Source: a virus. From it: a stretch of 59,529 nt of DNA. Under the pieces are notes generated by a model. That model saw nothing but the letters and a program-made list of their open reading frames with translations. It ran no database searches and was not told where the DNA came from. Shown piece by piece: positions 7,827-59,529 of the stretch. Position 1 is the stretch's first letter, and each line of letters starts with the position of its first letter. The position numbers were made by a program, and so were the translations under genes. Where the stretch lies: positions 1-59,529 of the IMG/VR virus record IMGVR_UViG_3300010885_015984, one strand, 5' to 3'.

Positions 7827-7858
7827 TATACGTGGTTAATTAGGAAACACGTATATAT
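7824..7858 (+). promoter_or_regulatory. Start-codon-covering hairpin
   Basis: Perfect inverted repeat: atatatacgtg (7824-7834) and cacgtatatat (7848-7858), with a 13-base loop gttaattaggaaa. The loop holds the likely ribosome site (agga), and the first two bases of the ATG (7857-7859) lie in the right arm. In RNA reading through from upstream, the start codon would be paired; in RNA started from GATAAATA it would be free because most of the left arm is missing. Confidence 0.6.
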
Positions 7859-8141
7859 GAGTAGACCAAAACCTAAAATATTACTAGAGTACGCTAACAA
7901 GGAAAACTTCAAAATTGAACAGATCCTCGATAGTGAAGCCATCTGGGCAGTATTTTACAAAGGGCAACCATTTAATCTAAAAAGCGGCAGTTTAGTTGCT
8001 AGCTACCCAGGACCTAAATATAAAAAAGTTTCATTCAGTAATCCGGGTCACGCATTGAATCTAGCCAAGAAACTTAATAGGTTGTTTAAGACCAAAGACT
8101 TTGAAGTTATGAAACTCACTCAAGGTGAGAAGGTAGAATAG
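7857..8141 (+). CDS. Conserved small phage protein, unknown
   Basis: 94 residues beginning MSRPKPKILLEYANKENFK. It has a mixed alpha/beta pattern with YPGPKYKKVSFSNPGHALNLA in the middle and a basic helix at the end (residues ~67-78, LNLAKKLNRLFK). The C-terminal part KDFEVMKLTQGEKVE is a strand plus tail. Proteins of this type are widespread in T4-like phages without known function. Ribosome site agga in the hairpin loop at 7842-7846; expression is probably controlled by the late promoter/hairpin pair described there. It starts a six-gene run reaching 10000. Confidence 0.65.
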   Translation: MSRPKPKILLEYANKENFKIEQILDSEAIWAVFYKGQPFNLKSGSLVASYPGPKYKKVSFSNPGHALNLAKKLNRLFKTKDFEVMKLTQGEKVE

Positions 8142-11199: not shown

Positions 11200-12442
11200 T
11201 TGGTGTATCCCAGTCCTTAGGATCAAAATAAGAATCTTTCTTTTCGCCTAGTTCACCAAAATCCAGTCCATTAAATTCAACTCCACAACATTGTCCGCAT
11301 TTAGCAGGACGCATTGATTTGTTTCCATTAGCGTCCCAAGTATCGGGAATCCACTGTTGAAATATATCTAATTGTAGAATGTCATAAAGATTGTTTTGAT
11401 GCATGTTTAGCTTATCAACTCCGCCCTGGAGTTCTATCATATTAACATAATTTTCATCGCGATCTTTTACCTTTGTATCAACAAAAGGTTCTGAACCTAA
11501 AAAGCAGCAAGGAGAAACATGTCCATTAGCACTGATATAAATTTCGTTAAATGGTTGATGATCCCTAGCATTTTTTACAGCTCGGCATGCTATTGATAAA
11601 TCTGTTAAATCAATTTCACGCCATTTACCATCAACAAATCGCATGTCGGTATTTTTTACACCTAACATATTTTTGAAATCTTCTAACTTAATACTTTGAT
11701 ACTTGCTTTGTTTGAAATACGTAGCATCTTCAAAATTATGTTTGAATCGGTCTTCATTGGGCTGTTTTAGATCGTATAGATACTTGCCCTTCCAGTATAC
11801 AGGATATATTCCTTGTTTTTCTTTCTTAAATATACCTTTGTATGACGACCATCTAGTTGTTCTTTTAACATTAAAATTCTTAAAGCCCATTTCTCTTGCT
11901 AAGGTACGTGCTTCTTCAACTTGATGCTCGTTGTGTTCAAAAACAATATAATCCCAATGTGCTATGCCGCCAGCATCTATAAATGCTTTGGCATTTTCCA
12001 TTATTTTTTTCCAATTAGTATTGCGTCTATATAAATGGTTAGTGTCTTCAAGCCCGTCTAAACTAAAAGTACAATAGTTGCCTTTATTCTGATCGCCACG
12101 CATTACAGCACCTAGTCTTGCCCACCATGCCGGTGTACGCAAACTACCGTTAGTGTTACATGCAAGCCCTATGCCCGGATTTATTTCTCTACAATACTCG
12201 TATATGTCTACAAATTCTCTACAGGCACAAGGATCACCAAAGTTACCGCAAGCTAATATCTTCCATAGTCCTTTGACAAATTCTTCTGGCCAGGATTTCT
12301 TAAAACTTTCTAACGTCCATTCTGTGTTGACCAGTGTTGAAATTTCATTGCCTTTTTCATCGTATCTTGGACACATAGGACATCCGCTGTTACACTTGTC
12401 TGTGGGTTCCCAATGTACTTGTGTTATATCACCTTTCCACAT
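11192..12442 (-). CDS. Radical SAM/SPASM-type enzyme
   Basis: 416 residues. The order is canonical: CNSGCPMC (Cys17, 21, 24) at the N-terminus, then ACGNFGDPCA (in the place of the GGEP-type SAM loop), FSLDGLEDTNHLYRRNT, and at the C-terminal end an auxiliary cluster region with CRAV, ISANGHVSPCCFLG and CGQCCG (382-387). This is the SPASM-like pattern of peptide-modifying radical SAM enzymes such as sactisynthases and mycofactocin/PQQ maturases. The substrate is not seen. It has a different build from the other four radical SAM proteins in the operon. A 7-base gap separates it from the preceding gene. Confidence 0.85.
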   Translation of the reverse strand: MWKGDITQVHWEPTDKCNSGCPMCPRYDEKGNEISTLVNTEWTLESFKKSWPEEFVKGLWKILACGNFGDPCACREFVDIYEYCREINPGIGLACNTNGSLRTPAWWARLGAVMRGDQNKGNYCTFSLDGLEDTNHLYRRNTNWKKIMENAKAFIDAGGIAHWDYIVFEHNEHQVEEARTLAREMGFKNFNVKRTTRWSSYKGIFKKEKQGIYPVYWKGKYLYDLKQPNEDRFKHNFEDATYFKQSKYQSIKLEDFKNMLGVKNTDMRFVDGKWREIDLTDLSIACRAVKNARDHQPFNEIYISANGHVSPCCFLGSEPFVDTKVKDRDENYVNMIELQGGVDKLNMHQNNLYDILQLDIFQQWIPDTWDANGNKSMRPAKCGQCCGVEFNGLDFGELGEKKDSYFDPKDWDTPNE

Positions 12443-12449
12443 AATAATC

Positions 12450-13652
12450 CTATAAGTATTCTTTCATTACCTGATAAAATTCAGGAAATGTATTTTCAAA
12501 TGATTCGTTTCTGATATTGTCACGCATTTTTATTTCTTGCCAAAACTCTTTCCACGTTGATTCGTTATATTCTGTATTTTCTAAATGGCGGCAAATCATA
12601 TCTCTTTCTTTATGCCATTGTCGAGTTTTATATGCGGACTCGTGTGTATTTAATTTATTAATAATTGTTTGTTTTAATCCAGGTGGAAGAATTCTAATAC
12701 CGTGATGATCATGTACTATATTAATGTATATTGGTATATTCTTTTCTGCATAATGTTCAAACGTTTCAAAAAAATCAAATACGTTAAATGCAGATATTGA
12801 TAGACAAACTCCAATGATCCATTCGGTATTGCTTTGATCTCTAACTGTACACAATTTGTTAATTGTTGATTCTGCAACTTCCCACTTAGCCGGGTGGCGA
12901 AGATATTCAAACTTTGCGCCAACTCCATCGGAGCTGACCTGTATGTCAACTGTCTTAAATTGCTCTAATAGGTCTATATATTTTTCTGGATATATTGTAC
13001 CGTTGGTGTTGTAGTGTATATGCTGTTTTTTACTCCAGCCGTTTTCTACACACATCTTAACTACATCCCAATGTTTTTCTATATAAAAAGGTTCGCCGCC
13101 GGCAAAATCAAACCGTTCTGCATCTGGTAATAACTTAACAATATCGTCCCAGAAAAATTTATTGTCGTAATCAAAACTTTCTTTGAAACTAATCCACTGT
13201 GGTTGATTAATATATTCTTTAGGATTGTTTGGTGATCTGACTTTTGCCTGTTCCATCAACCAAGGCGTAGAATGCCAAGGACTACAAATTCTACATTTGA
13301 TATTACATAAATTGCCCATAGATAAATCTACAACTATGGGCAACATATCTTCTGATAATTCTTTATCCTGATAAGTTTTATTATCTCGAATACGTTTACT
13401 TTCTTTACCTGCTGCTTCTTCTTTCCAACAAGCACTGCATTCAGATATCTGTATACCGTTATTAAGATCTGCAATCATCTGTTTGCGTTTATCACTATTC
13501 CAAAATTCAAGAATAGATGCTTGATTAAGAGTAGTTTTTTTAGAATCTGTTACATATTCTAATGTACTCATACAACACGGCTTAGTTGTGCCGTTAGGTT
13601 GCACACTTAAATTTAAGTATGGATTCACACACCAGGTTGTATTATTTTTCAT
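12450..13652 (-). CDS. Radical SAM enzyme with N-terminal twitch-like motif
   Basis: 400 residues. Cys8 (TWCVNPYLNLSVQPNG), Cys26-Cys27 (KPCCMST) and Cys72-x2-Cys75-Trp (ECSACWKEEA) precede the radical SAM motif CNIKCRIC (Cys116, 120, 123). Then come FDFAGGEPFYIEKHW and VSSDGVGAKFEYLRHPAKW. The layout matches the enzyme at 10003-11199 and suggests a common ancestor. The protein overlaps the previous gene by 11 bases and likely acts in the same pathway as its neighbours, on a peptide or glycan substrate that is not identified. Confidence 0.85.
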   Translation of the reverse strand: MKNNTTWCVNPYLNLSVQPNGTTKPCCMSTLEYVTDSKKTTLNQASILEFWNSDKRKQMIADLNNGIQISECSACWKEEAAGKESKRIRDNKTYQDKELSEDMLPIVVDLSMGNLCNIKCRICSPWHSTPWLMEQAKVRSPNNPKEYINQPQWISFKESFDYDNKFFWDDIVKLLPDAERFDFAGGEPFYIEKHWDVVKMCVENGWSKKQHIHYNTNGTIYPEKYIDLLEQFKTVDIQVSSDGVGAKFEYLRHPAKWEVAESTINKLCTVRDQSNTEWIIGVCLSISAFNVFDFFETFEHYAEKNIPIYINIVHDHHGIRILPPGLKQTIINKLNTHESAYKTRQWHKERDMICRHLENTEYNESTWKEFWQEIKMRDNIRNESFENTFPEFYQVMKEYL

Positions 13653-14997
13653 AGTTATCGTATACGTCTTTACAGAAATTATAAAATTCTGTATATTCTG
13701 GAAATAGCTCTAATAAGTTAGTTCCAAGACGTCGATCATTTTCTGTAAAGAAGCTATAAAAGTCTCTACGGCCTGCACGAATCTTATCTTCTGGAATTGT
13801 TTTAGCCTTCATATAATCTGTTACACGCAGAAACTTTTCATATTCTAAATCACTTAACCATTCACTGGTTTTAATAAACTCTAATGTGTCATCCATGTAG
13901 TGCATGAAATCATCTGTTAAAATATTAATCATCCAGTGCGGTGGTTCTTTAAGATACGGAGTATCAAATTTAATTGCTTCCTTACCAAATTCTTTACGCC
14001 ATTCAATTACTTTTTCTAACAAGCTCTTGAAGTTAGTAACACACAAAACATTAAACGTACACATGAAGTTTACAGTAGTGCCTGTAGCAAGCACAGCCCG
14101 CATATTACGTTCCCAATGCCCACAGTTTAATCCTGTACGCATATATTCTGCTTGTGCCCCCCAACTATCGATACTGGTGTAAAAACTAAATGATTTAATT
14201 TTTTTATTAGTTAATAGTGATCCCACTCGGTCAATTAATCTGTCTACTCGATCAAACGAAACTCCAAGATTACTGTTTAGGCTGATTTCAAGTCCAGGGG
14301 CTGGTTCGTTTTCTAATAAATCAAAGAATTGCATTGCTCCTGGATTCATTAACGGTTCACCACCTGTAATACGCAATGTATGTAAGTCGTTACGTAGACT
14401 TGGCCACCAACGCCAAAACGCTTCTATGTAGGGGTTTTCGTCTTTAGGACCGTAGTACGTTCCTGATTCTAAAAACTCAATTCCATATTGATTATAAGTT
14501 AAATCATAATTGCCGTGTTTCTTAACTTCTTCCATCCACATAGTACTTGCTTGTGGCGCACAATATCCGCATCGATAGTTACAGGCATTACCAAAGCTAA
14601 CTTCTAAATACCGTGGATTAATATTTTGATCCCAAGGTAATTTAGCTACTTCATCAATTATAGGGACACTGAAATCGCTAGCACTATGAATCATTCGATC
14701 ACTGATATGTTCGCCTTCTAAGTCCTCAATGTTCCAACAATACTGACATTCACTTGGTCGCTCTCCTTCTAACATTTTCTTGCGCTGTTCTTTTTTCCAT
14801 TTGGTATTATGCAAGGCACTGGCGTCAATGGCAATTTCATCTAACCCTATGTGATGCGGCCTAGGATGATAACAACTGTGATTATCACCTGTGTGGAGAT
14901 ATAAGGTTTGGTGTAACCATTTCATTGTACAAAAACTAGGACTTATATTGTTCAGCTTATCTCTAACTAGTTTAATATATTGTAATTTATGATCCAT
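13642..14997 (-). CDS. Radical SAM enzyme, paralog of the next gene upstream
   Basis: 451 residues. N-terminal SPSFCTMKWLHQTLYLHTGD with Cys23, then SCYHPR (Cys42), IAIDASALHNTKWKKEQRK, and Cys84-x2-Cys87-Trp (SECQYCWNIED). Radical SAM motif CNYRCGYC (Cys139, 143, 146); RITGGEPLMNP; SIDSWGAQAEYMRTGLN. The N-terminal motif differs from the operon's other twitch proteins by having CYH rather than CC. The protein at 14987-16414 aligns throughout, with the same motifs in the same order, so one copy arose by tandem duplication. The C-terminal ~100 residues are helical. It overlaps both neighbours. Confidence 0.85.
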   Translation of the reverse strand: MDHKLQYIKLVRDKLNNISPSFCTMKWLHQTLYLHTGDNHSCYHPRPHHIGLDEIAIDASALHNTKWKKEQRKKMLEGERPSECQYCWNIEDLEGEHISDRMIHSASDFSVPIIDEVAKLPWDQNINPRYLEVSFGNACNYRCGYCAPQASTMWMEEVKKHGNYDLTYNQYGIEFLESGTYYGPKDENPYIEAFWRWWPSLRNDLHTLRITGGEPLMNPGAMQFFDLLENEPAPGLEISLNSNLGVSFDRVDRLIDRVGSLLTNKKIKSFSFYTSIDSWGAQAEYMRTGLNCGHWERNMRAVLATGTTVNFMCTFNVLCVTNFKSLLEKVIEWRKEFGKEAIKFDTPYLKEPPHWMINILTDDFMHYMDDTLEFIKTSEWLSDLEYEKFLRVTDYMKAKTIPEDKIRAGRRDFYSFFTENDRRLGTNLLELFPEYTEFYNFCKDVYDNYEK

Positions 14998-16414
14998 TTA
15001 ATTCCTTACATTCATTCCAAAAAGTTTCTAATTGCGGGAATACATCTATAAAATTTCTATTATTACGAGTATCTTGCTCATTAAAGAATAGATAAAAATT
15101 CTTCATTGCAGTGATTTTATTAAAATTGCTGTCTGCCTTAATCCAATCGATTAATCTTTGTACTTTGCTAACTTCAAAATCCTTAAACCCTTTGTGATGA
15201 TTAAACAATCCTTCACGATTACTTAGCATGTATGCTTTGGCCTCTTCTAATTCTGTAATCATCTCTGGTAATAATTTAGGATTTAAGAAATCTGGATCTT
15301 GTAATTGAGGTATATCAAACCAAATTAATTGTCGATCTTTACTAAACTCTTTTCTTAGGGTATGTATATTTTTAATATATTCTACAAATCCTGTATAACT
15401 TAACGCATTAAAAGTAATAATGAATGTCAAACTATGCTTGTTACTGTTGGCAAGGTAATCTCTTATATTTTTGTGCAGTAAATTAAAATCCATGCCGTTA
15501 CGGATATATTCAGCTTCTATGCCCCACGAGTCTAAACTGCAAAACAACATAAAATGATCAATTGCGTCTTTTTCAGTGATTTTCTTCAATGATATCATAA
15601 ACTTATTCCACTGATTTCCTGGCGGACAGCAATTTGACGTTATAGACAGGTTTAAGTCGGTTTTAGGGTGCTCGTGTATGTAATCGAACATCTTAAAGGT
15701 GTTTTTATCCATTAGCGGCTCGCCGCCGGTCATACGGAAAGTTTGCAGCTTAGGATATACAACAGGCAGCCAATTCCAAAATGCTGTTAGGTAAGGATTG
15801 TCTGGACCATTATCTATATTCAAAGACTTAACCCATGACATGTCATTATGTTTTCTATCAGATAGTACATACGAGCCGTGTTGTTCAATTTCTTGTTGCC
15901 ATGCTGTACTTAAATGTGGGCTGCAATAGCTACACTTAAAATTACAGGCTTGATTAAAGTTTACTTCTACATAGCGTGGAATAGCGTTACCTTCAAACCC
16001 TAAGGCCCGAGCTTCTTCAACTAGTCCGTCTTCGTATACATCCTTACTACGATAGGCACGATCGCTTAACTGTGTACCACTATCTTCTATTTGCCAACAG
16101 AAATTACACTCTGTAGGACGCTTACCTTCGATCATTAATTTACGTTGTTCTTTTTTATGTTTGGTATTGTGTAACGCACTAACATCTATAGCAATTTCTT
16201 CAAGAGGAATTTGATGACTACGAGGATGATAACAACTGTGTGTTTGCCCTGTAGGAATATGTATACTTACGTTAAACCATTTAGCCAAGCAGAAACTAGG
16301 ACTTACTTCATTTAATTTTTCAAACACTGCACCAGCGTCTTGAAAATATTTAGATTGGTATCGTCCGTTAATTTTTACTAACTCGTTTCCTTTGATATTG
16401 TTGTTAATGGTCAT
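14987..16414 (-). CDS. Radical SAM enzyme, paralog of the adjacent gene
   Basis: 475 residues. SPSFCLAKWFNVSIHIPTGQ (Cys42), SCYHPRSHQIPLEEIAID (Cys61), ALHNTKHKKEQRK, Cys103-x2-Cys106-Trp (ECNFCWQIED), then CNFKCSYC (Cys157, 161, 164), RMTGGEPLMD and SLDSWGIEAEYIRNGMD. A sequence of ~20 residues before the first motif is extra compared with the neighbouring copy. It is the first radical SAM gene of the operon in transcription order and overlaps the glycosyltransferase upstream by 11 bases, so sugar transfer and radical chemistry are likely made together. Confidence 0.85.
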   Translation of the reverse strand: MTINNNIKGNELVKINGRYQSKYFQDAGAVFEKLNEVSPSFCLAKWFNVSIHIPTGQTHSCYHPRSHQIPLEEIAIDVSALHNTKHKKEQRKLMIEGKRPTECNFCWQIEDSGTQLSDRAYRSKDVYEDGLVEEARALGFEGNAIPRYVEVNFNQACNFKCSYCSPHLSTAWQQEIEQHGSYVLSDRKHNDMSWVKSLNIDNGPDNPYLTAFWNWLPVVYPKLQTFRMTGGEPLMDKNTFKMFDYIHEHPKTDLNLSITSNCCPPGNQWNKFMISLKKITEKDAIDHFMLFCSLDSWGIEAEYIRNGMDFNLLHKNIRDYLANSNKHSLTFIITFNALSYTGFVEYIKNIHTLRKEFSKDRQLIWFDIPQLQDPDFLNPKLLPEMITELEEAKAYMLSNREGLFNHHKGFKDFEVSKVQRLIDWIKADSNFNKITAMKNFYLFFNEQDTRNNRNFIDVFPQLETFWNECKELNGS

Positions 16415-18977: not shown

Positions 18978-19804
18978 GCAATTTCCTCTAAGATATTAAT
19001 TGTTTCTGCGGTAATTTTATCTTTCTCAACATAATGCACAATATCATACTGCTGGTAATTGCCAATTTTCAAATGACCTTGCCGATTAAAATAAAAGCCT
19101 ACATGGTTACTCCACTTGTCTGACGGCCACGGCCAATTCTGTACTAGTGGTTTCATGTGAACTACTCTAGGAAATTCCAGAGGATATGCAATTATATCTT
19201 GTATGTCTAGTATCTTTGCTGCCAAAGCAAATGCTTCATCGGTCCCTACAATTTTAGGTTTGAATTCTGATAAAAACAAATTACTAAATTCTGTAGGATT
19301 TTTTATAATAGCTCGGCCTAATGTAAAAAATTCTGTTACCAGCTCTGAGTCTTTCTTAAAGAATGTATAAAAACTATACAAGTTAGGTAATTTATTTTTT
19401 GTAAAAGTTCTACGATAGTCGTCACTGATTACCAATTCATTTCTATAGGTATATGCTTTATTAGATATGTATAATTCTGCATTTTCAATAAAGTAATCAA
19501 TCCAATGACTGTAATCTTTTAGAAACAGCATATCAGCATCAAGGCATACTGTATTTTCAAATGGTGTTAGTTGATCCATCCAACTGCGGCCATCCCAAAA
19601 TGTTTCTTGATCCCACTCAATTACTTCATCAAACACCCAAGCAGATTTTAATTCTGATACTGCTTTAGAATTGTTAGTAACCAATGCTACTTGATCGTAT
19701 CCTGGTTTTTGAGTATTTTTAATACTCAATGCTAGTGCATAGGCCATCTGAAGATAGTCATGTTCTGCGTTTTCAGAAATAATTATTAAATATCCAAATT
19801 TCAT
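18965..19804 (-). CDS. GT8-like glycosyltransferase
   Basis: 279 residues with a Rossmann-like start (GYLIIISENAEHDYLQMAYA) and VALVTNN, then FENTVCLDADMLFLKDYSHW, where Asp89-x-Asp91 is the DxD motif of GT-A retaining transferases such as glycogenin/LgtC. A region GTDEAFALAAKI matches the second conserved acceptor/donor loop of that family (usually 'DQDa.N'). VVHMKPLVQNWPW near the end resembles the C-terminal 'H.....KPW' signature. Likely transfers a hexose from a nucleotide sugar; the acceptor is unknown. It is coupled by ATGA to the gene before it. Confidence 0.75.
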   Translation of the reverse strand: MKFGYLIIISENAEHDYLQMAYALALSIKNTQKPGYDQVALVTNNSKAVSELKSAWVFDEVIEWDQETFWDGRSWMDQLTPFENTVCLDADMLFLKDYSHWIDYFIENAELYISNKAYTYRNELVISDDYRRTFTKNKLPNLYSFYTFFKKDSELVTEFFTLGRAIIKNPTEFSNLFLSEFKPKIVGTDEAFALAAKILDIQDIIAYPLEFPRVVHMKPLVQNWPWPSDKWSNHVGFYFNRQGHLKIGNYQQYDIVHYVEKDKITAETINILEEIAWKK

Positions 19805-20664
19805 ATTAATGATAATAGAGCCTCTGCATTCCTTATTATACTTTGTTTATTCATAATATGCAAGTCCATTCCTGTTATTGCAGCGGCAGAATAATTGGAA
19901 TCCATATTATATGCGATTAAAAATGTTAATTTGCCTTGACTATCTACACTATGTAATATGTCTTTATCCATAGTTGTTAGTAATGGTGGCAAGCTCATAG
20001 CTGTTGAAGTTTCAAATCCATCTAAAATATGTTTGGCCACACTAAAAGCTATGTCATTTCGATATTGCCTACTATCAAATCTAAAAATATCTGCATAGTA
20101 TTCATAATTGTTTTTAACATATTCAATCATATCAAATAATGACCTACTTCGATCGTTTTTAGTAAACATCACGGTAGTTGCCCAAAACAGATGTACGCCA
20201 GTATCGGAAACATACTTGTCGTGATACCCTAATCTTTTTTGATCGTAGATATCATTTGCTGAATTAGCAATTAAAATATCTTCATCTAAATTCCAATATT
20301 CATCTAACTTATTAGAAAAAATTAAATAATCACTGTCTAATAACAACGTACGATCATATGGAGTTAATTCCCAAACACTATTTCTATTTGTGTTTACAAA
20401 AGGAATTATTTTGTTAACCCCACCATCATGCAATCTTCTGCTATTGGTAGTTTTGGGTTTTTCTACTGTAATAATTTTATCAAAGACTTCAACTGCACGT
20501 TCATAAGTTTTGGAAGTTTGCATCCATTCAATTGTTGATGCATCTGTGATTAATGAAACAGGAATATTTAGATGTTTTTTAGCAAGCCCGCCAGAAATTA
20601 CTGCCAATAAAGCGTAATCAATATCTCTGCTATTGTGTGCAAAAATTATTGCGCCGCGGGTCAT
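19801..20664 (-). CDS. GT8-like glycosyltransferase
   Basis: 287 residues. GAIIFAHNSRDIDYALLAVI, VSLITDASTIEWM, then ELTPYDRTLLLDSDYLIFSN with Asp110-x-Asp112, the DxD position. The order of strands and the region FDSRQYRNDIAFSVAKHIL resemble the GT8 family and the neighbouring gene, but overall similarity is lower. The last ~60 residues (from LPPLLTTMDKDILH) may be a separate strand-rich cap. Like the other transferases in this operon it lacks any membrane anchor. The start overlaps the stop of the 116-residue gene (ATGA). Confidence 0.7.
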   Translation of the reverse strand: MTRGAIIFAHNSRDIDYALLAVISGGLAKKHLNIPVSLITDASTIEWMQTSKTYERAVEVFDKIITVEKPKTTNSRRLHDGGVNKIIPFVNTNRNSVWELTPYDRTLLLDSDYLIFSNKLDEYWNLDEDILIANSANDIYDQKRLGYHDKYVSDTGVHLFWATTVMFTKNDRSRSLFDMIEYVKNNYEYYADIFRFDSRQYRNDIAFSVAKHILDGFETSTAMSLPPLLTTMDKDILHSVDSQGKLTFLIAYNMDSNYSAAAITGMDLHIMNKQSIIRNAEALLSLI

Positions 20665-21011
20665 AGGCTTAATAATTTCTCTACAGATCTACTTTTTTTA
20701 AGTTCTTGATATTGTTCGTAGTATTCTAAAGTAGAAGTAAAATATCTGTCTAAAATTTCATCGCGAAATTTTTCAAGATCGTCAATTAGAATTGGATTTT
20801 CATTGGCGTCAATTAACGGTACTCCTACCTTGCGGTCTTGGTCAATTAACAGTTGAACAAACGCAATTAATGATCGATCAATCTTAAAGATACCGCCATT
20901 AATGCCATATGTTAATTTGGCATCAGTTTTTTCTTTAAGGGTTTTTCTTTGGATCGAAAAGGTTTGACGATAATTTGAAAACTCAAGAGCTTTTTTGAGT
21001 TGTGGTTCCAT
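20661..21011 (-). CDS. Small protein, first gene of the late glycosylation/radical SAM operon
   Basis: 116 residues. Predicted mostly helical with Lys/Glu-rich stretches (LKKALEFSNYRQTFSIQRKTLKEK; KFRDEILDRYFTSTLEYYEQYQELKK). In the middle is TYGINGGIFKIDRSLIAFVQLLIDQDRKVGVPLIDANENPILID, which is likely a small fold. I recall similar proteins near tail genes in T4-like phages, function unknown. It follows the exact late promoter TATAAATA and the hairpin at 21017-21063. Ribosome site aggag lies in that hairpin. Confidence 0.6.
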   Translation of the reverse strand: MEPQLKKALEFSNYRQTFSIQRKTLKEKTDAKLTYGINGGIFKIDRSLIAFVQLLIDQDRKVGVPLIDANENPILIDDLEKFRDEILDRYFTSTLEYYEQYQELKKSRSVEKLLSL

Positions 21012-21016
21012 GGATT

Positions 21017-21063
21017 CTCCTAATTAACATAGCACTTTATTTATAATGCTAGTTTATTAGGAG
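21017..21063 (-). promoter_or_regulatory. Ribosome-site-hiding hairpin with an internal late promoter
   Basis: In minus-strand RNA, a 12-base arm starting CUCCUAAU (21063-21052) pairs with a 12-base arm ending AUUAGGAG (21028-21017), with 11 of 12 pairs formed. A further inner stem of seven pairs (UAGCAUU with AGUGCUA, one wobble) is set off by one bulge, leaving an 8-base loop AUAAAUAA that holds most of the late promoter. The AGGAG ribosome site of the 21011 gene is fully paired at the base of the stem. There is no U-run after it, so it is not an intrinsic terminator. Confidence 0.7.
21038..21045 (-). promoter_or_regulatory. Late promoter, exact TATAAATA, for the eleven-gene operon
   Basis: On the minus strand the box reads TATAAATA, an exact match to the T4 late core. 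It ends 27 bases before the ATG of the 116-residue gene (21011). The box lies in the loop of a long hairpin, so a transcript started there (about 21032) would lack the left arm. No -35 element is needed for gp55-type promoters. Confidence 0.7.
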
Positions 21064-21075
21064 ATATGTATGTGA

Positions 21076-23709
21076 TTATACTTCTGTAGCTAATAATGCA
21101 AACGAACCACTAGACATTGCTGATGTTCCGGCGTCAGTATACATTTCTACGTCTAGACGTATTACGGTACCAATTGCCATAATATATGGTCCTTGCACAC
21201 CAGAAACACTTCGAGTAGTAGCGGTTCTTACACCACCATCTGCAAATGTATAAATGTCAGTGCCAATTACCAAGCGATAGTTGATAATTCGATTACTAGT
21301 TGCTGTAATTGATACTGAAAATCTAGCTGTACCGCGGCGTGTACAAGTAATACTACTAATTGTTTGCCAACCTGCTCCAGACACGTTTGATACTGATCCT
21401 GTTATAAAGGACACGCTGGTGCTAGCAGTTATTAATCGTAATGCTGAAGTATCTTGGATAGCAATTGATTGACTAGTTGCCAATACTGTAGTTCCTGATT
21501 TCAATCTTACTACAAATGATTCTAAATCTTCTGTTGCTACATCGTTAACTAAAGTTTTACTAAACGATCCAGCACTGCTAGTGACAATTCCTGAATTGGT
21601 TAATGTTCCGTCAGTAAAGTCTGCTCCAGTAACATTAGTTCCAACAATTTCATATGTATATGTCCCGTCTGGAATAAAATACCCGCTGATATAGAAACTC
21701 ACCGTGCCGCCTTCGTTAACTGATGTTACAGACGGTGTTATTAAGTATACTGGCACACCTGCAGTTGTCAAGTCGCTGATTGTTACTGCCGGTGACTCAA
21801 CTGTAAATGTTCCTGTCCCGGACGGTTGAAGAACTCCAGTAGCTTCATAGGTATTAACTGCCAAAGTCAGCGTACCATCAACTTGGTCGCCAGGCGATGG
21901 GTTTTCTGGAACTGCTGGTCCTGGATCAACATATCCGTCAATCCATTCTACTAAGAATTCAATCACAGTTGCAGTACCTAAAATGTTTATAGGTACGCTA
22001 GGAGTTCTAGCCGATATTCTAAATACGTTAGATGTATATGGGCTAGATGCCGTCGAAGTTGACCAAATTTGATAGGTGCTGGTTAATCTATAAAAATTGT
22101 TGCCGTTGGCAGGGGCTGTTCCCGTGCTTGGTTTATTGCCACCAAACGCTTTTGGTGTTACTGTAGTTGGGCTTAATAAATTAGTCCATGCTGTATTTTG
22201 TTGGTGGCCCGGAGTTGGACTTGTTGCGCCACCTGTTCTTGATGATGCAAATCTAATTTCGCCGCCGCTATTAAAGAAATATCTAGCTTGAGCTGCTGAT
22301 GAAAAACTTACCTGCACTATTGATGATACTGTACCATTCCAAAATGTACCTAACGTTGCAGACGGCCATGTATGTGATTTAGATCCTTTGGCGGTAGTAC
22401 TTGCTTGACTAACTGCAACACTAAATTTATTAGTGGTTAATGTGTTGGCAAATGCATCATATTGTGAATATGGGTATTCTGTTGCACTTGCTAATGTTAA
22501 CGATCTACTGGCTAATGTTTGTGATGTGCTGGTAGTCCATGTGCTTCTGCCCCACGGATTTGTTGCCATCGATGCCGTTACTGTCGTTGTTCCTGTTCCG
22601 TATGCTAGCTTGAATATTACTGTACTAATTGGTGTTGACCCGGGAGCAGCACTTAATAATATCATTGTATCATTTATTACACTACTAACAGTCTGTGAAG
22701 TAAACCCTGCACCTGCAATGCTCATTCCCGGAAGAACTCCTACTGTACTAGTAACTTTTAATCGAGTACCTGCAGATCCAACACTAAATGATCCAGTGGT
22801 TGAGGTAGAGGAAAAAGGATTACTTATATTAATAGCATAATAATCGTCACCAATTGATGTAGTTGCTGTTGCTATTGATGTAATAGTAGTATTAGCTGGT
22901 ATGCCTGTTCCTGATATGCCGTTGCCTACCGCAAACATACCGCTGTAATTTGCATTATTAAAATTAGTTACAGACATGTAGAATATGCTTTTACCTACAA
23001 ACACTCTGTTTGGCCCCAACGATGATAATGTACCGGTTGCGGTATATAGCGGCTCAGGCGAAACTGTAATATTAGTAGCAACCGTAGATATTACTGTTCT
23101 TTCCGGATCGGTGTCATACTTTAATGTTAGTGAGGTTGTTGTACTGGCCGTTGCTGCAAATGTGCCGTTAAATGTTGCATTACTATTACCGGCAACAGTG
23201 TATGTTAATCCTGTTTCTAATGCTAATGGTTCTGCTGGAATTGTATATGCTACATAATACGGACCGGTGCCTGTTTTGCTAACAAAACTTGAAATTGTAA
23301 TTGGTGTTTGTGCAGCCGCCGCTGTTATTGTTGGAGTTCCCACAATTCCTGTTCCAGAAATTGTTTGGCCGACTGTAACCATTCCTGAGGTTACTCCGTA
23401 CACGATAAGACTTGTTCCAGATCTTGCAGCAGTAATTATTGTAGTGTCAATATCCGATTTAATAATGTTGTTTAATGTAGCAGAAGTTGCACCTGCTGGC
23501 ACAGCACCTGTTTGATGAACATAACAATTTACAATATCGTAATATAGTTTACCCCATTCGTTAATTGTAATGTTGTTACTGTCGGTTACTGCGGTGCTTA
23601 ATATAGTTTGGCCGTATCCAGAGTCTGCAGATCCTGGACCTAAAATAGTAATTACTTTAGTTCGAATATCATTATAATCTGCTGTTTGTATTTTTTTATT
23701 TACGGTCAT
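21076..23709 (-). CDS. Large Ser/Thr-rich tail protein with Calx-beta-like domain
   Basis: 877 residues. The N-terminal ~70 residues (DYNDIRTKVITILGPGSAD, GYGQTILSTAV) and residues ~425-645 (NTLTTNKFSVAV to FTVESPAVTI) match the 308-residue protein upstream, including YFFNSGG and SSPYTSN. Between them lies a ~350-residue Thr/Ser-rich insertion of repeated strands. Residues ~655-755 look like a Calx-beta/Ig-type domain (VTSVNEGGTVSFYISG, TLTNSG, FVVRLKSGTTVLATSQ), and the last ~120 form another strand-rich domain. Probably an adhesin or tail decoration protein that binds the host surface. A weak GTTAAATA box lies 25 bases before the ATG. Confidence 0.7.
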   Translation of the reverse strand: MTVNKKIQTADYNDIRTKVITILGPGSADSGYGQTILSTAVTDSNNITINEWGKLYYDIVNCYVHQTGAVPAGATSATLNNIIKSDIDTTIITAARSGTSLIVYGVTSGMVTVGQTISGTGIVGTPTITAAAAQTPITISSFVSKTGTGPYYVAYTIPAEPLALETGLTYTVAGNSNATFNGTFAATASTTTSLTLKYDTDPERTVISTVATNITVSPEPLYTATGTLSSLGPNRVFVGKSIFYMSVTNFNNANYSGMFAVGNGISGTGIPANTTITSIATATTSIGDDYYAINISNPFSSTSTTGSFSVGSAGTRLKVTSTVGVLPGMSIAGAGFTSQTVSSVINDTMILLSAAPGSTPISTVIFKLAYGTGTTTVTASMATNPWGRSTWTTSTSQTLASRSLTLASATEYPYSQYDAFANTLTTNKFSVAVSQASTTAKGSKSHTWPSATLGTFWNGTVSSIVQVSFSSAAQARYFFNSGGEIRFASSRTGGATSPTPGHQQNTAWTNLLSPTTVTPKAFGGNKPSTGTAPANGNNFYRLTSTYQIWSTSTASSPYTSNVFRISARTPSVPINILGTATVIEFLVEWIDGYVDPGPAVPENPSPGDQVDGTLTLAVNTYEATGVLQPSGTGTFTVESPAVTISDLTTAGVPVYLITPSVTSVNEGGTVSFYISGYFIPDGTYTYEIVGTNVTGADFTDGTLTNSGIVTSSAGSFSKTLVNDVATEDLESFVVRLKSGTTVLATSQSIAIQDTSALRLITASTSVSFITGSVSNVSGAGWQTISSITCTRRGTARFSVSITATSNRIINYRLVIGTDIYTFADGGVRTATTRSVSGVQGPYIMAIGTVIRLDVEMYTDAGTSAMSSGSFALLATEV

Positions 23710-24673: not shown

Positions 24674-26458
24674 TTACAGCACCACTGCTTCGACTAATTT
24701 AACCCCTGCATCGTCATTAGATTCTAACGCTACAGCAAATACATCTAATCTATCAGCGGCTACTTGAGCAACTCCGTCGTTGCCTGCTACAAGTCGATCG
24801 CCTTTTTTAACTTCGCCGGCTACCTTAACAGGAACTCGTCCTTTAAGAGCTATATATGTCCCGCCTTCTAAATCTTTGTTCATCATAAACGCTGGGTTTG
24901 CACTTACAACCCCTATGGCTAACTCACCGTAACTTGATGCAGTAACTTCTGCGTTACCGCCAACTACTACTACTGTGCCAACTTCGTATTCTGCATCAGC
25001 TAGATATTTTTCAGCTAAGTCTGCATAGCGAGCTGCGGTAGCTGTTCCTTGAAATAATGACGCATAGATATCGCCGCTTGCATCTCTTGCCGCTACTGTA
25101 TTAATAGTTGCTGTCAATGCTGCTGATCTATATGTACCATCTACTAATAATTGTTTTGCTTGATCAGCAATACCATTAAATTCAACAGCAGAAATGTTTC
25201 CTGAAGAATTTCTAACTGCAACAGATGTTTTATTTGGATCGGTTGGGATTGCAATTGACGGTGGATATGTTCCGAGCAAGGTAGCAGTTCCTGCAGTTCC
25301 TGTAACGTTACCTTGAACGTTACCTATCACTAGTGCTGGTGTTGATACTGTTCCTAATGTACCTAAGAATGTTTTAGTTGTTGCATTGACTAAAATTGTA
25401 CTGTCAGTCGCTACAACATTTCCTGTTAACGACCCTGTAAATACTTTTGTTGCTGCGGTGTATGCTGTCGTATTATCGGCGGCTATTAAATTACCATTAA
25501 ACCCAGTAGCATATACATTTGCCCATTTGTTATCGGCAGCTCCTAGATTGTAAGCATTAGTTATACCTGGCACTATTCCAGTTCTATTCATCACCGCAAC
25601 GTCACGTTCGTCTGTAGCTTCAGTAACTGTTATTCTAAATGTAATTTCATTACCTAATCTGTTTTCAACAATAACTTCGTCACTGTTTTCAACACGAATT
25701 CTTAAATCGTTACCGTCACCTAATTGGAATCCTGGATCTTTGAAACTAATTTCGCTGTCAAATATTACACTACCTTTTTGTAAGTAGTCTGCTGCAAGTA
25801 CTCCGCCTAATCGCAATGCATTAGATGATGTTCCCCAGTATACATAATCATTTTGACTCACACCACTGGTGTTAGTTTCAGTTAATGTAAATCCTTTTTT
25901 AATGCTAGTAAATCCAGTAATTGGGTTAATTGTACTGTTTAAGATGAACGAATCATCACCGTTAACTATTCCTACACACTTACCCGAAGATAATAGTTTA
26001 AGAATTGTATGACTGTTGTTTACATCGTCTTTTACCACCTGTGCAATAACTGAACTTGTACCTAAATCGGGGCTAGCCTCTGGTCCTACTAGTACAAAGT
26101 CTGTTCCAGTATATGTGTATAGTTGCTTGGCAGAACTATCCCACCAAAATTCACCAACTTGTAAACCGCTTGGGGCTGTTATGCTAACTTCTGCACCACC
26201 GGCTACTTTGAATCTAGTACCGTCATAAAATTTTAATCTGCTGGTTGCACTATCATACCAAATTTGACCTTTAATAGTTTTTGGTGGTGCACTGGTATTT
26301 GCAAAATTTTCTAGTAAGTGAAGGAAATTTTCATTCTGTACCTCACCGTAGCCAGCGTAGTTTTTACCTACAAATCGAAGATCCGTAGTACTGTCAATAG
26401 TACCGTCTTCTACAGATGTTAAAAATGTCCCGTTAAATCTATCTACTTGATATGCCAT
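24674..26458 (-). CDS. Tail fibre protein (first of the MAYQ paralogs by position)
   Basis: 594 residues. The N-terminal ~125 residues hold the shared attachment domain seen in three other proteins here: MAYQVDRFNG, a GYGE-x3-ENFLHLLENF segment, KGQIWYDSATSRLKFYDGTRF, GEFWWDSSAKQLYTYTG. The middle is a Thr/Ala/Gly-rich beta-rich shaft with repeats such as FNGNLIAADNTT and TGTAGTATLLG. The C-terminal ~117 residues (ARYADLAEKYLADAEYEVGT to VKLVEAVVL) form a compact domain found at the ends of many phage fibres. It is likely a receptor-binding fibre. A late promoter-like AATAAATA ends 25 bases before the ATG. Confidence 0.8.
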   Translation of the reverse strand: MAYQVDRFNGTFLTSVEDGTIDSTTDLRFVGKNYAGYGEVQNENFLHLLENFANTSAPPKTIKGQIWYDSATSRLKFYDGTRFKVAGGAEVSITAPSGLQVGEFWWDSSAKQLYTYTGTDFVLVGPEASPDLGTSSVIAQVVKDDVNNSHTILKLLSSGKCVGIVNGDDSFILNSTINPITGFTSIKKGFTLTETNTSGVSQNDYVYWGTSSNALRLGGVLAADYLQKGSVIFDSEISFKDPGFQLGDGNDLRIRVENSDEVIVENRLGNEITFRITVTEATDERDVAVMNRTGIVPGITNAYNLGAADNKWANVYATGFNGNLIAADNTTAYTAATKVFTGSLTGNVVATDSTILVNATTKTFLGTLGTVSTPALVIGNVQGNVTGTAGTATLLGTYPPSIAIPTDPNKTSVAVRNSSGNISAVEFNGIADQAKQLLVDGTYRSAALTATINTVAARDASGDIYASLFQGTATAARYADLAEKYLADAEYEVGTVVVVGGNAEVTASSYGELAIGVVSANPAFMMNKDLEGGTYIALKGRVPVKVAGEVKKGDRLVAGNDGVAQVAADRLDVFAVALESNDDAGVKLVEAVVL

Positions 26459-26482
26459 GCTTGTTAGCCCCTAATGATATTA

Positions 26483-26490
26483 TATTTATT
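26483..26490 (-). promoter_or_regulatory. Late-promoter-like box AATAAATA
   Basis: On the minus strand AATAAATA, one base from the T4 late core, lies 25 bases before the tail fibre ATG at 26458, in a 45-base gap. The same octamer occurs before 34668 and 58693, so this is probably the common late promoter form in this phage. A short ctaat/attag inverted repeat flanks it. Confidence 0.5.
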
Positions 26491-26503
26491 AGTATTGCTG
26501 CGA

Positions 26504-26938
26504 TTAATAATTGACATCGGGTTTAGGCCAAAACGCATAAATGTCCGGATTGTCTTTATAAACCTGTTTAGCAGCAGCATGATTTGTTACTTTTTGTTTG
26601 ATAAAATCACGCATTTCTATGAATTCGGGTGTCAACGGAATCCCTGCTTTCTCTATGCATTCAGCAATGATGTTTAATTGCGTATGCACAGGATAGTTGA
26701 CTAAAATTTCTTTATTAACTACTGTATCAATAGCAATTTCGTCAATTAACGGTAACTCGTGTTTGTCAACAACTTGCCCGGTAGCATAATCGCCCCAATA
26801 ATATTCTTCAGCACCAATTTCTAAAACTTTATGTTTTATCGAAGTTGCTGTTAGATTAGCTGCAAATGCAGCATTATATTCTACCACAGATATTGGGTTT
26901 GCACCATCGTTACTGAAAATTACAATTTTTTGTGTCAT
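26504..26938 (-). CDS. Probable tail fibre assembly/chaperone-like protein
   Basis: 144 residues from the ATG at 26938, which overlaps the oxygenase stop (ATGA); a start five codons earlier would sit inside that gene. It shows a small alpha/beta N-terminal part (KIVIFSNDGANPISVVEYNA) and an acidic C-terminal helix (IEMRDFIKQKVTNHAAAKQVY) ending with AFWPKPDVNY. Size, place between fibre genes and the helical tail resemble small phage tail-fibre assembly proteins, but no diagnostic motif was found. Function is inferred from context. Confidence 0.45.
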   Translation of the reverse strand: MTQKIVIFSNDGANPISVVEYNAAFAANLTATSIKHKVLEIGAEEYYWGDYATGQVVDKHELPLIDEIAIDTVVNKEILVNYPVHTQLNIIAECIEKAGIPLTPEFIEMRDFIKQKVTNHAAAKQVYKDNPDIYAFWPKPDVNY

Positions 26939-27432
26939 AATATTTTCCCCCAAGTTAATACAAGACTATACTTTGGGTTTTCATCCTGTTCAATTGTTGT
27001 TACTTCGTGTTCTAAATTTATTGGCATTTTAAGCAACATGCCTGGTTTTTCTTCTACTAAATGTTGTTCACCTGCTTCGTCATACCATGCAAAATGTGGG
27101 CGATCCGATCTTAAAAAAATCAACTTAAATTTCCAATATCCACCAGCACTATCTTTATGTCTTAATAGATAATCGCCTGGCTCGTATCTATTAATAACAC
27201 ATCCGTCGCAGCTACGATCTTCTGCAGGAAGTGACTCATAAACAAGATCTGTTAATTCTTTAGGCATGTTCCATTGAAACATACTTCGCATTTGACTATC
27301 GCCGTAGTTTGTAGAAAAATTATATTTTTCTCCCGGTTTTCTTACATGAAATTTGTCTTGATTTTGATCTGCTAATTCAATAATAGCATCAACATTCTTA
27401 CAGTAATCTTCCACATAAGATACTTCTATCAT
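26935..27432 (-). CDS. 2OG-Fe(II) oxygenase (prolyl hydroxylase-like)
   Basis: 165 residues from the ATG at 27432, coupled by ATGA to the tail fibre gene; an earlier ATG at 27462 lies in that gene. Fe ligands are His92 and Asp94 in YEPGDYLLRHKDSAGG, and His142 in PINLEHEV. Lys154 in NPKYSLVLTWG is at the place of the 2-oxoglutarate-binding Arg/Lys. The strands FKLIFLRSD and GMLLKMP complete the double-stranded beta-helix. It would hydroxylate or otherwise oxidise a substrate with O2 and 2-oxoglutarate. Being in the middle of a fibre gene cluster suggests that a fibre protein is the substrate, as has been proposed for such oxygenases of cyanophages, but this is inference. Confidence 0.85.
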   Translation of the reverse strand: MIEVSYVEDYCKNVDAIIELADQNQDKFHVRKPGEKYNFSTNYGDSQMRSMFQWNMPKELTDLVYESLPAEDRSCDGCVINRYEPGDYLLRHKDSAGGYWKFKLIFLRSDRPHFAWYDEAGEQHLVEEKPGMLLKMPINLEHEVTTIEQDENPKYSLVLTWGKIL

Positions 27433-29783
27433 ACATAACTCCAAGATCCTGTATAGTTCCAAGTACTGCCATTTGAAGAATAAATTAATTTATACCCTGT
27501 TGAGTTATCGTACAACGTAGTGGTTGCACTCACTGATAGTGTTCCCCATTGGTACGCATTAATCCATCTGCCACCGCTTGCTGATGCAGTTGTGGCTGCA
27601 TATACTACATTAATGATAAAGTCAAATGTTGCACCTACTGTAACTGAGTTAGCTGGCAAGTATGCATTGATTAGATCTGCATATTGCGCACTCGGTGATG
27701 TTAGATTAGGTTGCGGATCACTGATAATTAATTTGTTTGGAATCTTAGATAACATGTTATCTACGTATGCCGTGGTAGCTATTCGTGTGCTGTTATCAAA
27801 TGCAGTTCGTGTTGTAGAGAATTGTGCGTTTACCGCAGTAGTATTCAATACATTAGTTGCGGCATTGTATGTTAAATTAGTATCTACCTTGGCAGGAAGC
27901 GAACCAGTAGATGCAGTAACGAATGTTACATAACCTGTGGTTGTTGTATCATCCACAGTTACTCCAACATTGGTAGCATTAGTAGCTGTAGAGGCTGTAC
28001 CTGTTAAATTGGCTGTGATGGTTCCTGCTGCAAAATTGCCACTGACATCACGTACTACTACCTTGTTTGCTGTATTTGTTGAAACCGCGTCAACATAAAT
28101 TGTAACAGGAACTGAACTAGATCCGTCATAGGTTAAGATAGGCGCACTAGTTAATGTATTTTTTAATGCAAGATGTGTACCAGGAGTTAGTCCTTCAAAT
28201 GTCGGATTAGTCCATGCAAGTGTGCCACCAGCAGCCGCTTTTAATATTTGTCCTGGTGCTCCAACAGCTAGTAATGATGTTATACTTGCTGCTGTTTGAT
28301 ATGGAATTGCACCTGGCCCGCCACCTACAATATTTGTTGCACGAGTTGCTAATGTTGCTGTGTCAGCATTACCTATTAAGTTACTGGCATAGATTTTGTT
28401 CCACGTTGCTGATGGGTGACCAAGATTTGTTGCACCTTCTGTATCTGGTATTAGTGCCGGAGCACTTAATCCGCCCAATGCCACTGACTCAGAGGCCGGA
28501 ATAAAACTTAAATCTGTAACAGCCCCGGGCTGGCTTGTATCTGCTATATCAAAATTAATTTTTTTATTAGTAGCTGTAGCTCTTATTGTAGGAACTCCAG
28601 CATCGACAAATATCTTAAATTGACCACCAATAGTAGCACCGAGGTCTGCTACAGCAAGACTAGTTAATGTGCCTACTGAAGTTAAATTTGATTCAACTAC
28701 TGTTGGATTAATATATGTGCCGGTTAATGTCTGTGCGCTAGCAGGAACAGTAACATTAGCAGTACCATCAAATGCTACTCCATTAATTGTTCTAGCTGAA
28801 ATAAGTTTTGTTGCGGTAAATGCATTACCGCTTAATGTTGGTCCTCTAAATTCAGTAGCTTCAACAATATTAAATTGACTTGTTCCTGTACTAGTAGTAA
28901 CATTACCTCGAACGTTACCAACTAAATCTGCTGTAATGGTTCCTGCGGCAAATCCGCCAGCACTGTTTCTTGCCACTACTTTACCTATTGAATTTGAAGA
29001 GCTAGCATCGACACTCCAAGTTATTGCTGAGGATCCATCAAAATCTGATCCTACAATATAATCTCCTTTTACTAATTTGTTAGTAGTGCTAGATTTAATT
29101 GTAATATTTGAGCCACCATTAAATGATATACCATTAATAGTTCTTGGATTTTCTAAAAAGGTTGCTGTGGTTGAATTTCCTACTAAACTGCCTTTGAATT
29201 TTCGTAGGCTTGAAAGAGTAATACCTGATTCTAAATCTAAAAATCCTTCAACTGAATTTGATGCTGCAATTGTAAATGCTACTGACGAACAAATTCCAAT
29301 AACTATCCCGTCAACAGTTAACATTATTACTGGGTGAGTTCCTCCTAGAGTACCGACTAATGAAGTGCTTCTTGCTCTAGTTGGTCCAAACCCTGCAACT
29401 GCTTCTGGCCCGATAAATGCCCATCCTGCTGGGGTCCATGTATGTAGTGTGTTATCTGTAGTTCGTAACCATAATTCGCCCACTGACGGAGTTGGTGGCG
29501 GTGTAAGGGATAATACTGCTGCGCCAACGATAGCCCATTTAGTACCATCGTATACATTTAATAAATTATTTTGACTGTCAAACCATGTCTGTCCTTTTAA
29601 TGGTCTCGCTGGAGGAAATGTATTAGAAAAGTTTTCTAACAAGAACACAAAATTTTCATTCTGTGTTTCTCCGTATCCTACATAGTTTCGTCCAACTAAC
29701 CCAAGGCTAGTAGAAGTGTCAATGGTACCATCTTCTAAAACTACTAGTTCTGGTCCGCTAAATTTGTTAATTGTATACGCCAT
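27429..29783 (-). CDS. Tail fibre protein with MAYT attachment domain
   Basis: 784 residues. N-terminal domain: MAYTINKFSGPE, GRNYVGYGETQNENFVFLLE, LKGQTWFDSQNNLLNVYDGT, GELWLRTTDNTLHTW. The shaft is built from many repeats of the type NGISFNGGSNITIK and AARTINGVAFDGTA seen in long phage fibres, with tracts such as FAAGTITANLTGTAS occurring twice. The end (WINAYQWGTLSVSATTTLYDNS, YTGSWSYV) is a different receptor-binding tip from those of its paralogs. It follows the 617-residue fibre and overlaps the oxygenase. Confidence 0.8.
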   Translation of the reverse strand: MAYTINKFSGPELVVLEDGTIDTSTSLGLVGRNYVGYGETQNENFVFLLENFSNTFPPARPLKGQTWFDSQNNLLNVYDGTKWAIVGAAVLSLTPPPTPSVGELWLRTTDNTLHTWTPAGWAFIGPEAVAGFGPTRARSTSLVGTLGGTHPVIMLTVDGIVIGICSSVAFTIAASNSVEGFLDLESGITLSSLRKFKGSLVGNSTTATFLENPRTINGISFNGGSNITIKSSTTNKLVKGDYIVGSDFDGSSAITWSVDASSSNSIGKVVARNSAGGFAAGTITADLVGNVRGNVTTSTGTSQFNIVEATEFRGPTLSGNAFTATKLISARTINGVAFDGTANVTVPASAQTLTGTYINPTVVESNLTSVGTLTSLAVADLGATIGGQFKIFVDAGVPTIRATATNKKINFDIADTSQPGAVTDLSFIPASESVALGGLSAPALIPDTEGATNLGHPSATWNKIYASNLIGNADTATLATRATNIVGGGPGAIPYQTAASITSLLAVGAPGQILKAAAGGTLAWTNPTFEGLTPGTHLALKNTLTSAPILTYDGSSSVPVTIYVDAVSTNTANKVVVRDVSGNFAAGTITANLTGTASTATNATNVGVTVDDTTTTGYVTFVTASTGSLPAKVDTNLTYNAATNVLNTTAVNAQFSTTRTAFDNSTRIATTAYVDNMLSKIPNKLIISDPQPNLTSPSAQYADLINAYLPANSVTVGATFDFIINVVYAATTASASGGRWINAYQWGTLSVSATTTLYDNSTGYKLIYSSNGSTWNYTGSWSYV

Positions 29784-29800
29784 TTATTCGCCCCTAAACC

Positions 29801-31654: not shown

Positions 31655-31668
31655 TTATTTTTCTCTAA

Positions 31669-58774: not shown

Positions 58775-59529
58775 ATGATAACTGTACCTAAAATAAAGTA
58801 CCTAACCAACAAAGATCTACTTAAAGAGATCCATAGAAGTAAAAATACATACTGTACCTTCACTGACAAAGCATATGGCGATTACGATCTAATTATACCT
58901 AACTTAGAAAAGCTCAATATACGCACTATAGCAGAAGCCAAAAGAAATCGTGCATCTAGACTGAGCAAAATAGCTCATGAAGCTGCAATGTTAGCTGGCG
59001 GTAAGAAAATTCCTGCAAAAGAGTTTGAAATTGATTACAAAAAAATACCAAAACTAGACCTAGTATTTCGGGTTATGACCTTTGAGCATATTCCACTTGC
59101 TCCGGGTCGAAAGAAGACATTAAAAAATACAGCCGACAGTCACGATAAAGTAAACTTTCCTCCATTCCAACATTGGAAATTTGACGAGAAAGACAACCTT
59201 ATCTGTGTAGGTAAAAGCCATTGGAAAGGTCCGTTGGACTCTGGAGAGTTTAATAAAGAGCACGGGCAAATGACTGATAACTTAGCTCGCATGTTTTTGA
59301 AATTATGTGAGCGATATGCTACTAGAGGCAACGTCCGTGGATATACATATAACGATGAGATGCGTGGACAAGCCATTTTACAATTAACCCAAATAGGACT
59401 ACAATTTGATGAAAGTAAATCTGATAATCCTTTTGCTTACTATACTGCTGCTGTTACCAATAGTTTCGTACGTATCATCAACATTGAAAAACGTAACCAA
59501 AATATTAGAGACGACATCCTCGAGATGAA
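58775..59529 (+). CDS. 55: Late transcription sigma factor gp55 (3' truncated)
   Basis: At least 251 residues, running off the window end. The frame starts with ATG 58775 after aggag. The core GQMTDNLARMFLKLCERYAT, GYTYNDEMRGQAI, PFAYYTAAVTNSFVRIINIE and KRNQNIRDDILEM is the sigma region 2-like part of T4 gp55, which binds core RNA polymerase and recognises TATAAATA. The N-terminal ~150 residues (KIPKLDLVFRVMTFEHIPLA; FPPFQHWKFDEKDNLICVGK) are an extension relative to T4 gp55 (185 aa). In T4 the sigma works with gp33 and the gp45 clamp. It explains the TATAAATA-type boxes in the window. Confidence 0.92.
   Translation, partial: MITVPKIKYLTNKDLLKEIHRSKNTYCTFTDKAYGDYDLIIPNLEKLNIRTIAEAKRNRASRLSKIAHEAAMLAGGKKIPAKEFEIDYKKIPKLDLVFRVMTFEHIPLAPGRKKTLKNTADSHDKVNFPPFQHWKFDEKDNLICVGKSHWKGPLDSGEFNKEHGQMTDNLARMFLKLCERYATRGNVRGYTYNDEMRGQAILQLTQIGLQFDESKSDNPFAYYTAAVTNSFVRIINIEKRNQNIRDDILEM

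What the first reader, a model, noticed from the sequence alone, without database searches (positions are those of the whole stretch)
21017..21063. Hairpin hides the ribosome site of the operon unless transcription starts at the internal late promoter
About 18 pairs with one mismatch and one bulge enclose the AGGAG of the first gene. The exact TATAAATA box lies in the loop, so late RNA lacks the left arm. The same logic is established for T4 gene e (lysozyme), where read-through RNA is not translated and late RNA is. Here read-through from the fibre operon would be silenced, giving the modification operon its own control.
Basis: partly seen in the sequence, partly recalled or inferred. Interest (0 to 1): 0.72.

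Follow-up and report, generated by a model that had tools for sequence, protein, structure and literature searches.

The report
Late promoter inside a start-hiding hairpin
In an uncultured T4-like phage group, the gap between a virion-fibre gene and the next operon holds an RNA hairpin that should hide the operon's ribosome site in any message running on from the fibre gene, but not in messages started at the promoter inside the hairpin; the hairpin is kept by compensating mutations across many relatives, so the trick known from phage T4 lysozyme is probably in real use here as an insulator.

Summary
On the minus strand, 21064-21016 forms a 19-bp hairpin (one A·A mismatch, one bulge; about -22 kcal/mol, z -5.2). 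All of AGGAG (21021-21017) is paired, and 7 of 8 bases of the TATAAATA box lie in the loop. A T4-type late start would fall at about 21032, leaving the ribosome site open. It is the most stable leader among 43 ORFs of at least 100 aa in the window.

In relatives of the 116-aa gene, 121 of 128 non-redundant leaders keep a late box 23-31 nt before the ATG. Read-through RNA folds at a mean of -15.6 kcal/mol, late-start RNA at -2.0. Swapping arms between phages destroys the fold (permutation p<1e-5; sister pairs 23 of 26, p=9e-5). Of 72 representatives, 51 have a strong hairpin, 10 a weak one, 11 none. Other late boxes in the same genomes show no such structure.

The mechanism is that of T4 e and I-TevI. 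The setting differs: the upstream gene is a virion-fibre gene, so insulation from fibre read-through fits better than delay until late time. Distant homologues use other insulators in the same gap. No transcript or translation data exist; function is inferred.

The parts
21016..21064 (-). RBS-sequestering hairpin of read-through RNA (left arm 21064-21045, loop 21044-21037, right arm 21036-21016)
   Evidence: fold -22.3 kcal/mol, z -5.2; persists in 351-nt context; arms covary in relatives
21038..21045 (-). T4-type late promoter box TATAAATA, 7 of 8 bases in the loop
   Evidence: late box kept in 121 of 128 non-redundant relatives at 23-31 nt from the ATG
21030..21034 (-). predicted late transcript start (+1 about 21032), inside the right arm
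   Evidence: box = about -13..-6 in T4 late promoters (PMC2988020); inference, no 5'-end data
21017..21021 (-). Shine-Dalgarno AGGAG, wholly paired in read-through RNA
   Evidence: sequence, fold; open in late-start RNA
20661..21011 (-). 116-aa first gene of the operon; helix-strand-helix fold, weak resemblance to DUF4376 proteins; function unknown
   Evidence: AF2 mean pLDDT 89; Foldseek
19801..20664 (-). 287-aa second gene, 4-nt overlap with the first; GT8/glycogenin-like fold with invariant DxD, putative glycosyltransferase
   Evidence: same family downstream in 126 of 126 relatives tested; AF2 pLDDT 92.5, Foldseek E about 3e-7 to glycogenin
21076..23709 (-). upstream co-directional virion-fibre-like gene (877 aa), source of the read-through RNA
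   Evidence: same family upstream in 121 of 127; no PHROG/Pfam hit of its own, neighbours 24674-34017 hit tail/virion families
59252..59524 (+). gp55-family late sigma factor (cut off by the window end)
   Evidence: phrog_234, E 9.7e-25

Best explanation
The 64-nt gap between the fibre gene and the 116-aa/GT8-like gene pair is a promoter nested in an anti-Shine-Dalgarno hairpin. RNA that runs on from the fibre operon contains both arms and folds the ribosome site away, so the downstream pair is not (or poorly) translated from it. RNA started by the gp55-type late RNA polymerase at about 21032 lacks the whole left arm and is translated. The arrangement makes the downstream operon's own late promoter its main control and insulates it from the fibre genes. 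Shown by sequence: hairpin, box, geometry, conservation, covariation, specificity to this gene. Inferred: promoter activity, translational silencing, and insulation (rather than delay) as the benefit.
For: Hairpin far beyond chance. The late box is present in 121 of 128 leaders; read-through RNA folds at a mean of -15.6, late-start RNA at -2.0, left-arm-shuffled RNA at -9.4 kcal/mol; z <= -2 in 73 of 121. Arm swap among 72 representatives not selected for a hairpin: native -15.9 against permuted -10.0 +/- 0.34, none of 100,000 reaching it. In 29 sister pairs native is better in 23, worse in 3, tied in 3, p 9e-5. Strong hairpins occur all over the tree (51 strong, 10 weak, 11 absent). Of 79 late-box/SD/ORF sites in 7 genomes, the 116-aa gene has z -3.0 to -6.7 in 6 of 7, while the other 72 average -0.42. 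gp55-family sigma in the window and 11 of 12 large relatives, T4-type capsid in 5. T4 e (-14.9, z -4.5) and I-TevII (-26.4, z -6.1) give the same signature. Upstream fibre family 121/127 and downstream GT-like gene 126/126 conserved. Distant homologues put other insulators in the same gap.
Against: No 5'-end, RNA or translation data. 21 of 72 representatives have a weak or no hairpin, so it is dispensable in some lineages. The anti-SD lies a median of 9 nt after the fibre stop codon (12 nt in the window), at the edge of a terminating ribosome's footprint, so translation of the fibre gene might partly open it. Column-wise covariation within one conserved subclade is modest. Many shuffled leaders also pair the SD, because the left region is pyrimidine-rich.
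Confidence: 0.72

Rival explanations
1. Temporal gate as in T4 e: some early or middle transcript crosses the fibre region and the hairpin keeps the operon silent until late transcription begins. Same parts, different benefit.
For: Identical anatomy to T4 e and I-TevI (PMC3014915 and PMC2988022).
Against: Upstream genes are virion genes on the same strand from 58.7 kb to 21 kb, some with late-like boxes of their own (26483, 23734). In L221 and close relatives the promoter in the hairpin is sigma-70 type, so late timing is not the common factor.
Confidence: 0.13
2. Translational coupling: ribosomes ending on the fibre gene open the base of the hairpin, so the downstream pair is translated from read-through RNA only when the fibre gene is being translated.
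For: The fibre stop to anti-SD spacing is short and fairly constant (mode 8-9 nt); intergenic length is 55-64 nt in most.
Against: In the window the hairpin begins 11 nt after the stop, outside the expected footprint; a promoter in the loop would be unnecessary; distant homologues use terminators in the same gap, the opposite of coupling.
Confidence: 0.08
3. The hairpin serves the upstream message: 3'-end protection or an RNase III-type processing site for the fibre mRNA; hiding the ribosome site is a by-product.
For: A long, nearly perfect stem right after a structural gene.
Against: The stem is placed over the Shine-Dalgarno in most lineages despite sequence change, with the promoter box in the loop; no such stems at the other late-box sites.
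Confidence: 0.05
4. Intrinsic terminator of the fibre operon.
For: L299-L301 and L304 have the hairpin followed by T6; L307-L310 have terminator-like stems with T-runs.
Against: In the window and its close relatives no T-run follows the stem, and the scan finds no terminator at 20600-21300.
Confidence: 0.02

Closest known systems
T4 gene e (lysozyme) early-RNA inhibitory hairpin; also soc, 49, I-TevI, segB, and mobE of Aeh1
   Same: Shine-Dalgarno sequestered in longer RNA; T4-type late box inside the hairpin; late RNA lacks the 5' arm (PMC3014915, PMC2988022; recomputed for e and I-TevII)
   Different: Those genes lie on transcripts encoding early/middle products; here the upstream gene is a virion-fibre gene. 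Different gene, uncultured clade, conservation with covariation over proteins down to about 54-60% identity
IS10/IS50-type protection of transposase from outside transcription (own knowledge; not found in the paper library)
   Same: Read-through RNA folds and hides the ribosome site; RNA from the element's own promoter does not. Purpose is insulation
   Different: Transposons with sigma-70 promoters; no late sigma factor; not phage virion operons
DUF4376-containing phage proteins (structure of the first gene's product only)
   Same: Foldseek ranks several DUF4376 proteins near the 116-aa model (TMq about 0.5, E 1e-3 to 1e-1)
   Different: No convincing sequence match to Pfam, NCBIfam or PHROGs; membership not shown

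Membership tests
T4-type late genes with a ribosome-site hairpin (e, soc, 49, I-TevI) | Shine-Dalgarno and/or AUG sequestered in a helix of the longer RNA | tested here: met
   AGGAG fully paired, -22.3 kcal/mol, z -5.2; covariation
T4-type late genes with a ribosome-site hairpin (e, soc, 49, I-TevI) | late promoter placed so that late RNA lacks the 5' strand of the helix | tested here: met
   TATAAATA 21045-21038, predicted +1 at 21032; late RNA open; the start itself is not mapped
T4-type late genes with a ribosome-site hairpin (e, soc, 49, I-TevI) | gp55-dependent late transcription system | tested here: met
   phrog_234 at 59252-59524, E 9.7e-25, and in 11 of 12 large relatives; gene presence only
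T4-type late genes with a ribosome-site hairpin (e, soc, 49, I-TevI) | gene lies on long transcripts of early/middle genes | tested here: inconclusive
   upstream genes are fibre/virion-like on the same strand, which argues against it, but no transcripts are known
T4-type late genes with a ribosome-site hairpin (e, soc, 49, I-TevI) | read-through RNA poorly translated, late RNA well translated | not testable with these tools
   needs reporter or proteomic data
intrinsic (Rho-independent) terminator | GC-rich stem followed by a U-run | tested here: not met
   no terminator-like site at 20600-21300
Rfam families | match at the gathering score | tested here: not met
   0 matches in the window

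The most novel reading that the evidence does not exclude
The fibre-to-GT gap is a dedicated insulator, kept across a wide family of T4-like phages by at least three interchangeable designs: a late promoter in an anti-SD hairpin (window and most relatives), a sigma-70 promoter in an anti-SD hairpin that also ends in T6 (L299-L301, L304), and a plain terminator in the gap, followed in several by a promoter-like sequence (L302, L303, L305-L310). The selected trait would be uncoupling of this operon from fibre read-through, not late timing.
Probability: 0.45. Interest if true: 0.62.

Novelty: new member of a known kind. Interest (0 to 1): 0.52.

Why it matters
The promoter-in-hairpin trick is textbook for T4 e and homing endonucleases, with conservation reported mainly among close T4 relatives. 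Here it is seen in an uncultured T4-like group with compensating changes in the arms, essentially at one gene only, and with different insulators replacing it in distant relatives. That turns a regulatory trick known from single genes into one with measurable selection, and suggests it can serve as insulation between late operons and not only as an early/late timer. It also marks a conserved fibre-adjacent gene pair (116-aa protein plus GT8-like enzyme) whose dosage the phage seems to control strictly.

Tried and rejected
PHROGs, Pfam and NCBIfam for the 116-aa protein and neighbours: mostly nothing. INPHARED phages: no homologue of the 116-aa protein even at E 5, so no isolate or transcriptome to read. 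A guessed PHROG number for the late sigma was wrong and was replaced by scanning T4 gp55. Gapless RNAalifold in Python gave empty structures and was dropped; one MAFFT alignment of all clades misaligned the arms, so arm-swap tests were used instead of column covariation. Probability of SD pairing proved a poor statistic because shuffled pyrimidine-rich left regions also pair the SD; energy z-scores were used. Column-wise counts within the CATAAATA subclade were only modestly above shuffles. Terminator rejected for the window. The reading that all late promoters in these phages carry hairpins was rejected.

Full report
Observation. On the minus strand, the 64 nt between the stop of the 877-aa fibre-like gene (21076) and the ATG of the 116-aa gene (21011) fold into one hairpin: left arm 21064-21045, loop 21044-21037, right arm 21036-21016, 19 pairs, one A.A mismatch and one bulge, -22.3 kcal/mol against -8.85 +/- 2.58 for shuffles. 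AGGAG (21021-21017) is wholly paired. TATAAATA (21045-21038) has 7 of its 8 bases in the loop. The fold survives in a 351-nt context and is the most stable leader of 43 ATG ORFs of at least 100 aa in the window. Exact TATAAATA is rarer than chance in the window, 3 against 10.8.

Promoter. T4 late boxes lie about one helical turn upstream of the start (about -13 to -6; PMC2988020), which puts +1 at 21032, within the right arm. RNA from there has no stable structure over the ribosome site. The window carries a gp55-family late sigma gene at its edge (59252-59524, E 9.7e-25), as do 11 of 12 large relatives, and several relatives carry a T4-type capsid gene. The late system is therefore likely present; that this box is used is inferred.

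Conservation. The 116-aa protein has no match in 50,697 sequenced phages but hundreds in IMG/VR. From 250 loci, 128 leaders are non-redundant. Of these, 121 have a late box 23-31 nt before the ATG: TATAAATA 38, AATAAATA 22, CATAAATA 20, GGTAAATA 20, GATAAATA 14, GCTAAATA 6, ACTAAATA 1. Mean energies are -15.6 for read-through RNA, -2.0 for late-start RNA and -9.4 after shuffling the left arm; 73 of 121 have z <= -2.

Covariation. Exchanging left arms among 72 representatives that were not chosen for having a hairpin raises the mean energy from -15.9 to -10.0 +/- 0.34, and none of 100,000 permutations comes near the native value. Among 29 sister or near-sister pairs taken from the protein tree the native pairing is better in 23, worse in 3, tied in 3 (sign test p 9e-5). 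On the tree, 51 representatives are strong, 10 weak, 11 lack the hairpin, and the strong ones occur throughout. The structure is therefore under selection but is sometimes lost. Column counts within one tight subclade are only modestly above shuffles.

Specificity and controls. Of 79 late-box/SD/ORF sites in seven genomes, the 116-aa gene gives z -3.0 to -6.7 in six of seven; the other 72 average -0.42. T4 e (-14.9, z -4.5) and T4 I-TevII (-26.4, z -6.1) score in the same way.

Context. A fibre protein of the same family lies upstream in 121 of 127 leaders. The downstream gene is the same 287-aa family in 126 of 126, mostly with a 4-nt overlap. The 287-aa protein models as a GT8/glycogenin-like fold with an invariant DxD, so a glycosyltransferase is likely. 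The 116-aa protein models well (pLDDT 89) with only weak resemblance to DUF4376 proteins and to prefoldin; its function is open.

Why it is there. The known T4 cases are late genes on transcripts of early and middle genes (PMC2988022). Here the upstream genes are virion genes, so the simplest benefit is insulation from fibre read-through. Distant homologues support this: L299-L301 and L304 place a near-consensus sigma-70 promoter (TTGACT-17-TATAAT) inside a hairpin that pairs the ribosome site and ends in T6; L302, L303, L305 and L306 have a terminator-like stem with a T-run followed by a sigma-70-like promoter; L307-L310 have a terminator-like stem with a T-run in the gap. Different parts, same gap, same expected effect. 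The parent phage of L221 also has the gp55-family sigma and a T4-type capsid gene.

Limits. There are no transcripts, no isolate and no translation data. Coupling by terminating fibre ribosomes is possible because the anti-SD starts a median of 9 nt after the stop (12 in the window). Lineages without the hairpin show that it is not essential. Contigs are fragments, and the count of late promoters per genome is incomplete. The promoter and terminator calls in distant homologues are sequence readings, not tests of function.

Verdict. The kind of element is known from T4; the setting, the breadth of conservation and the alternative insulators are the new parts.

Noticed in passing
L299, L300, L301, L304 (about 45 nt before the ATG): Sigma-70 promoter TTGACT-17-TATAAT nested in a hairpin GCCTCCGTTATGTATAA..TTATACATAAACGGAGG followed by T6, pairing the ribosome site: promoter, terminator-like stem and anti-SD in one element.
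   Followed up: partly
window 7819-7860 (+): GATAAATA box followed by ATATACGTG..CACGTATATAT enclosing the AGGA of the 94-aa gene at 7857: a possible second hairpin at a late-like promoter, this one partly within the late RNA.
   Followed up: no
relatives G012 (472-513 +), G009 (58191 -), G008 (7570 +), read as L114, L113 and L107: TATAAATA upstream of 287-289-aa genes in three relatives, where the leader folds with arms on both sides of the box; the three genes were not compared with each other.
   Followed up: partly
window, whole: TATAAATA is under-represented on both strands (3 found, 10.8 expected; with up to one mismatch 141 against 208), as if stray late promoters were selected against.
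   Followed up: no
window 10003-16414 (-): A run of radical-SAM-like genes downstream of the GT-like genes on the same strand, an unusual amount of tailoring enzymes behind a fibre gene.
   Followed up: no
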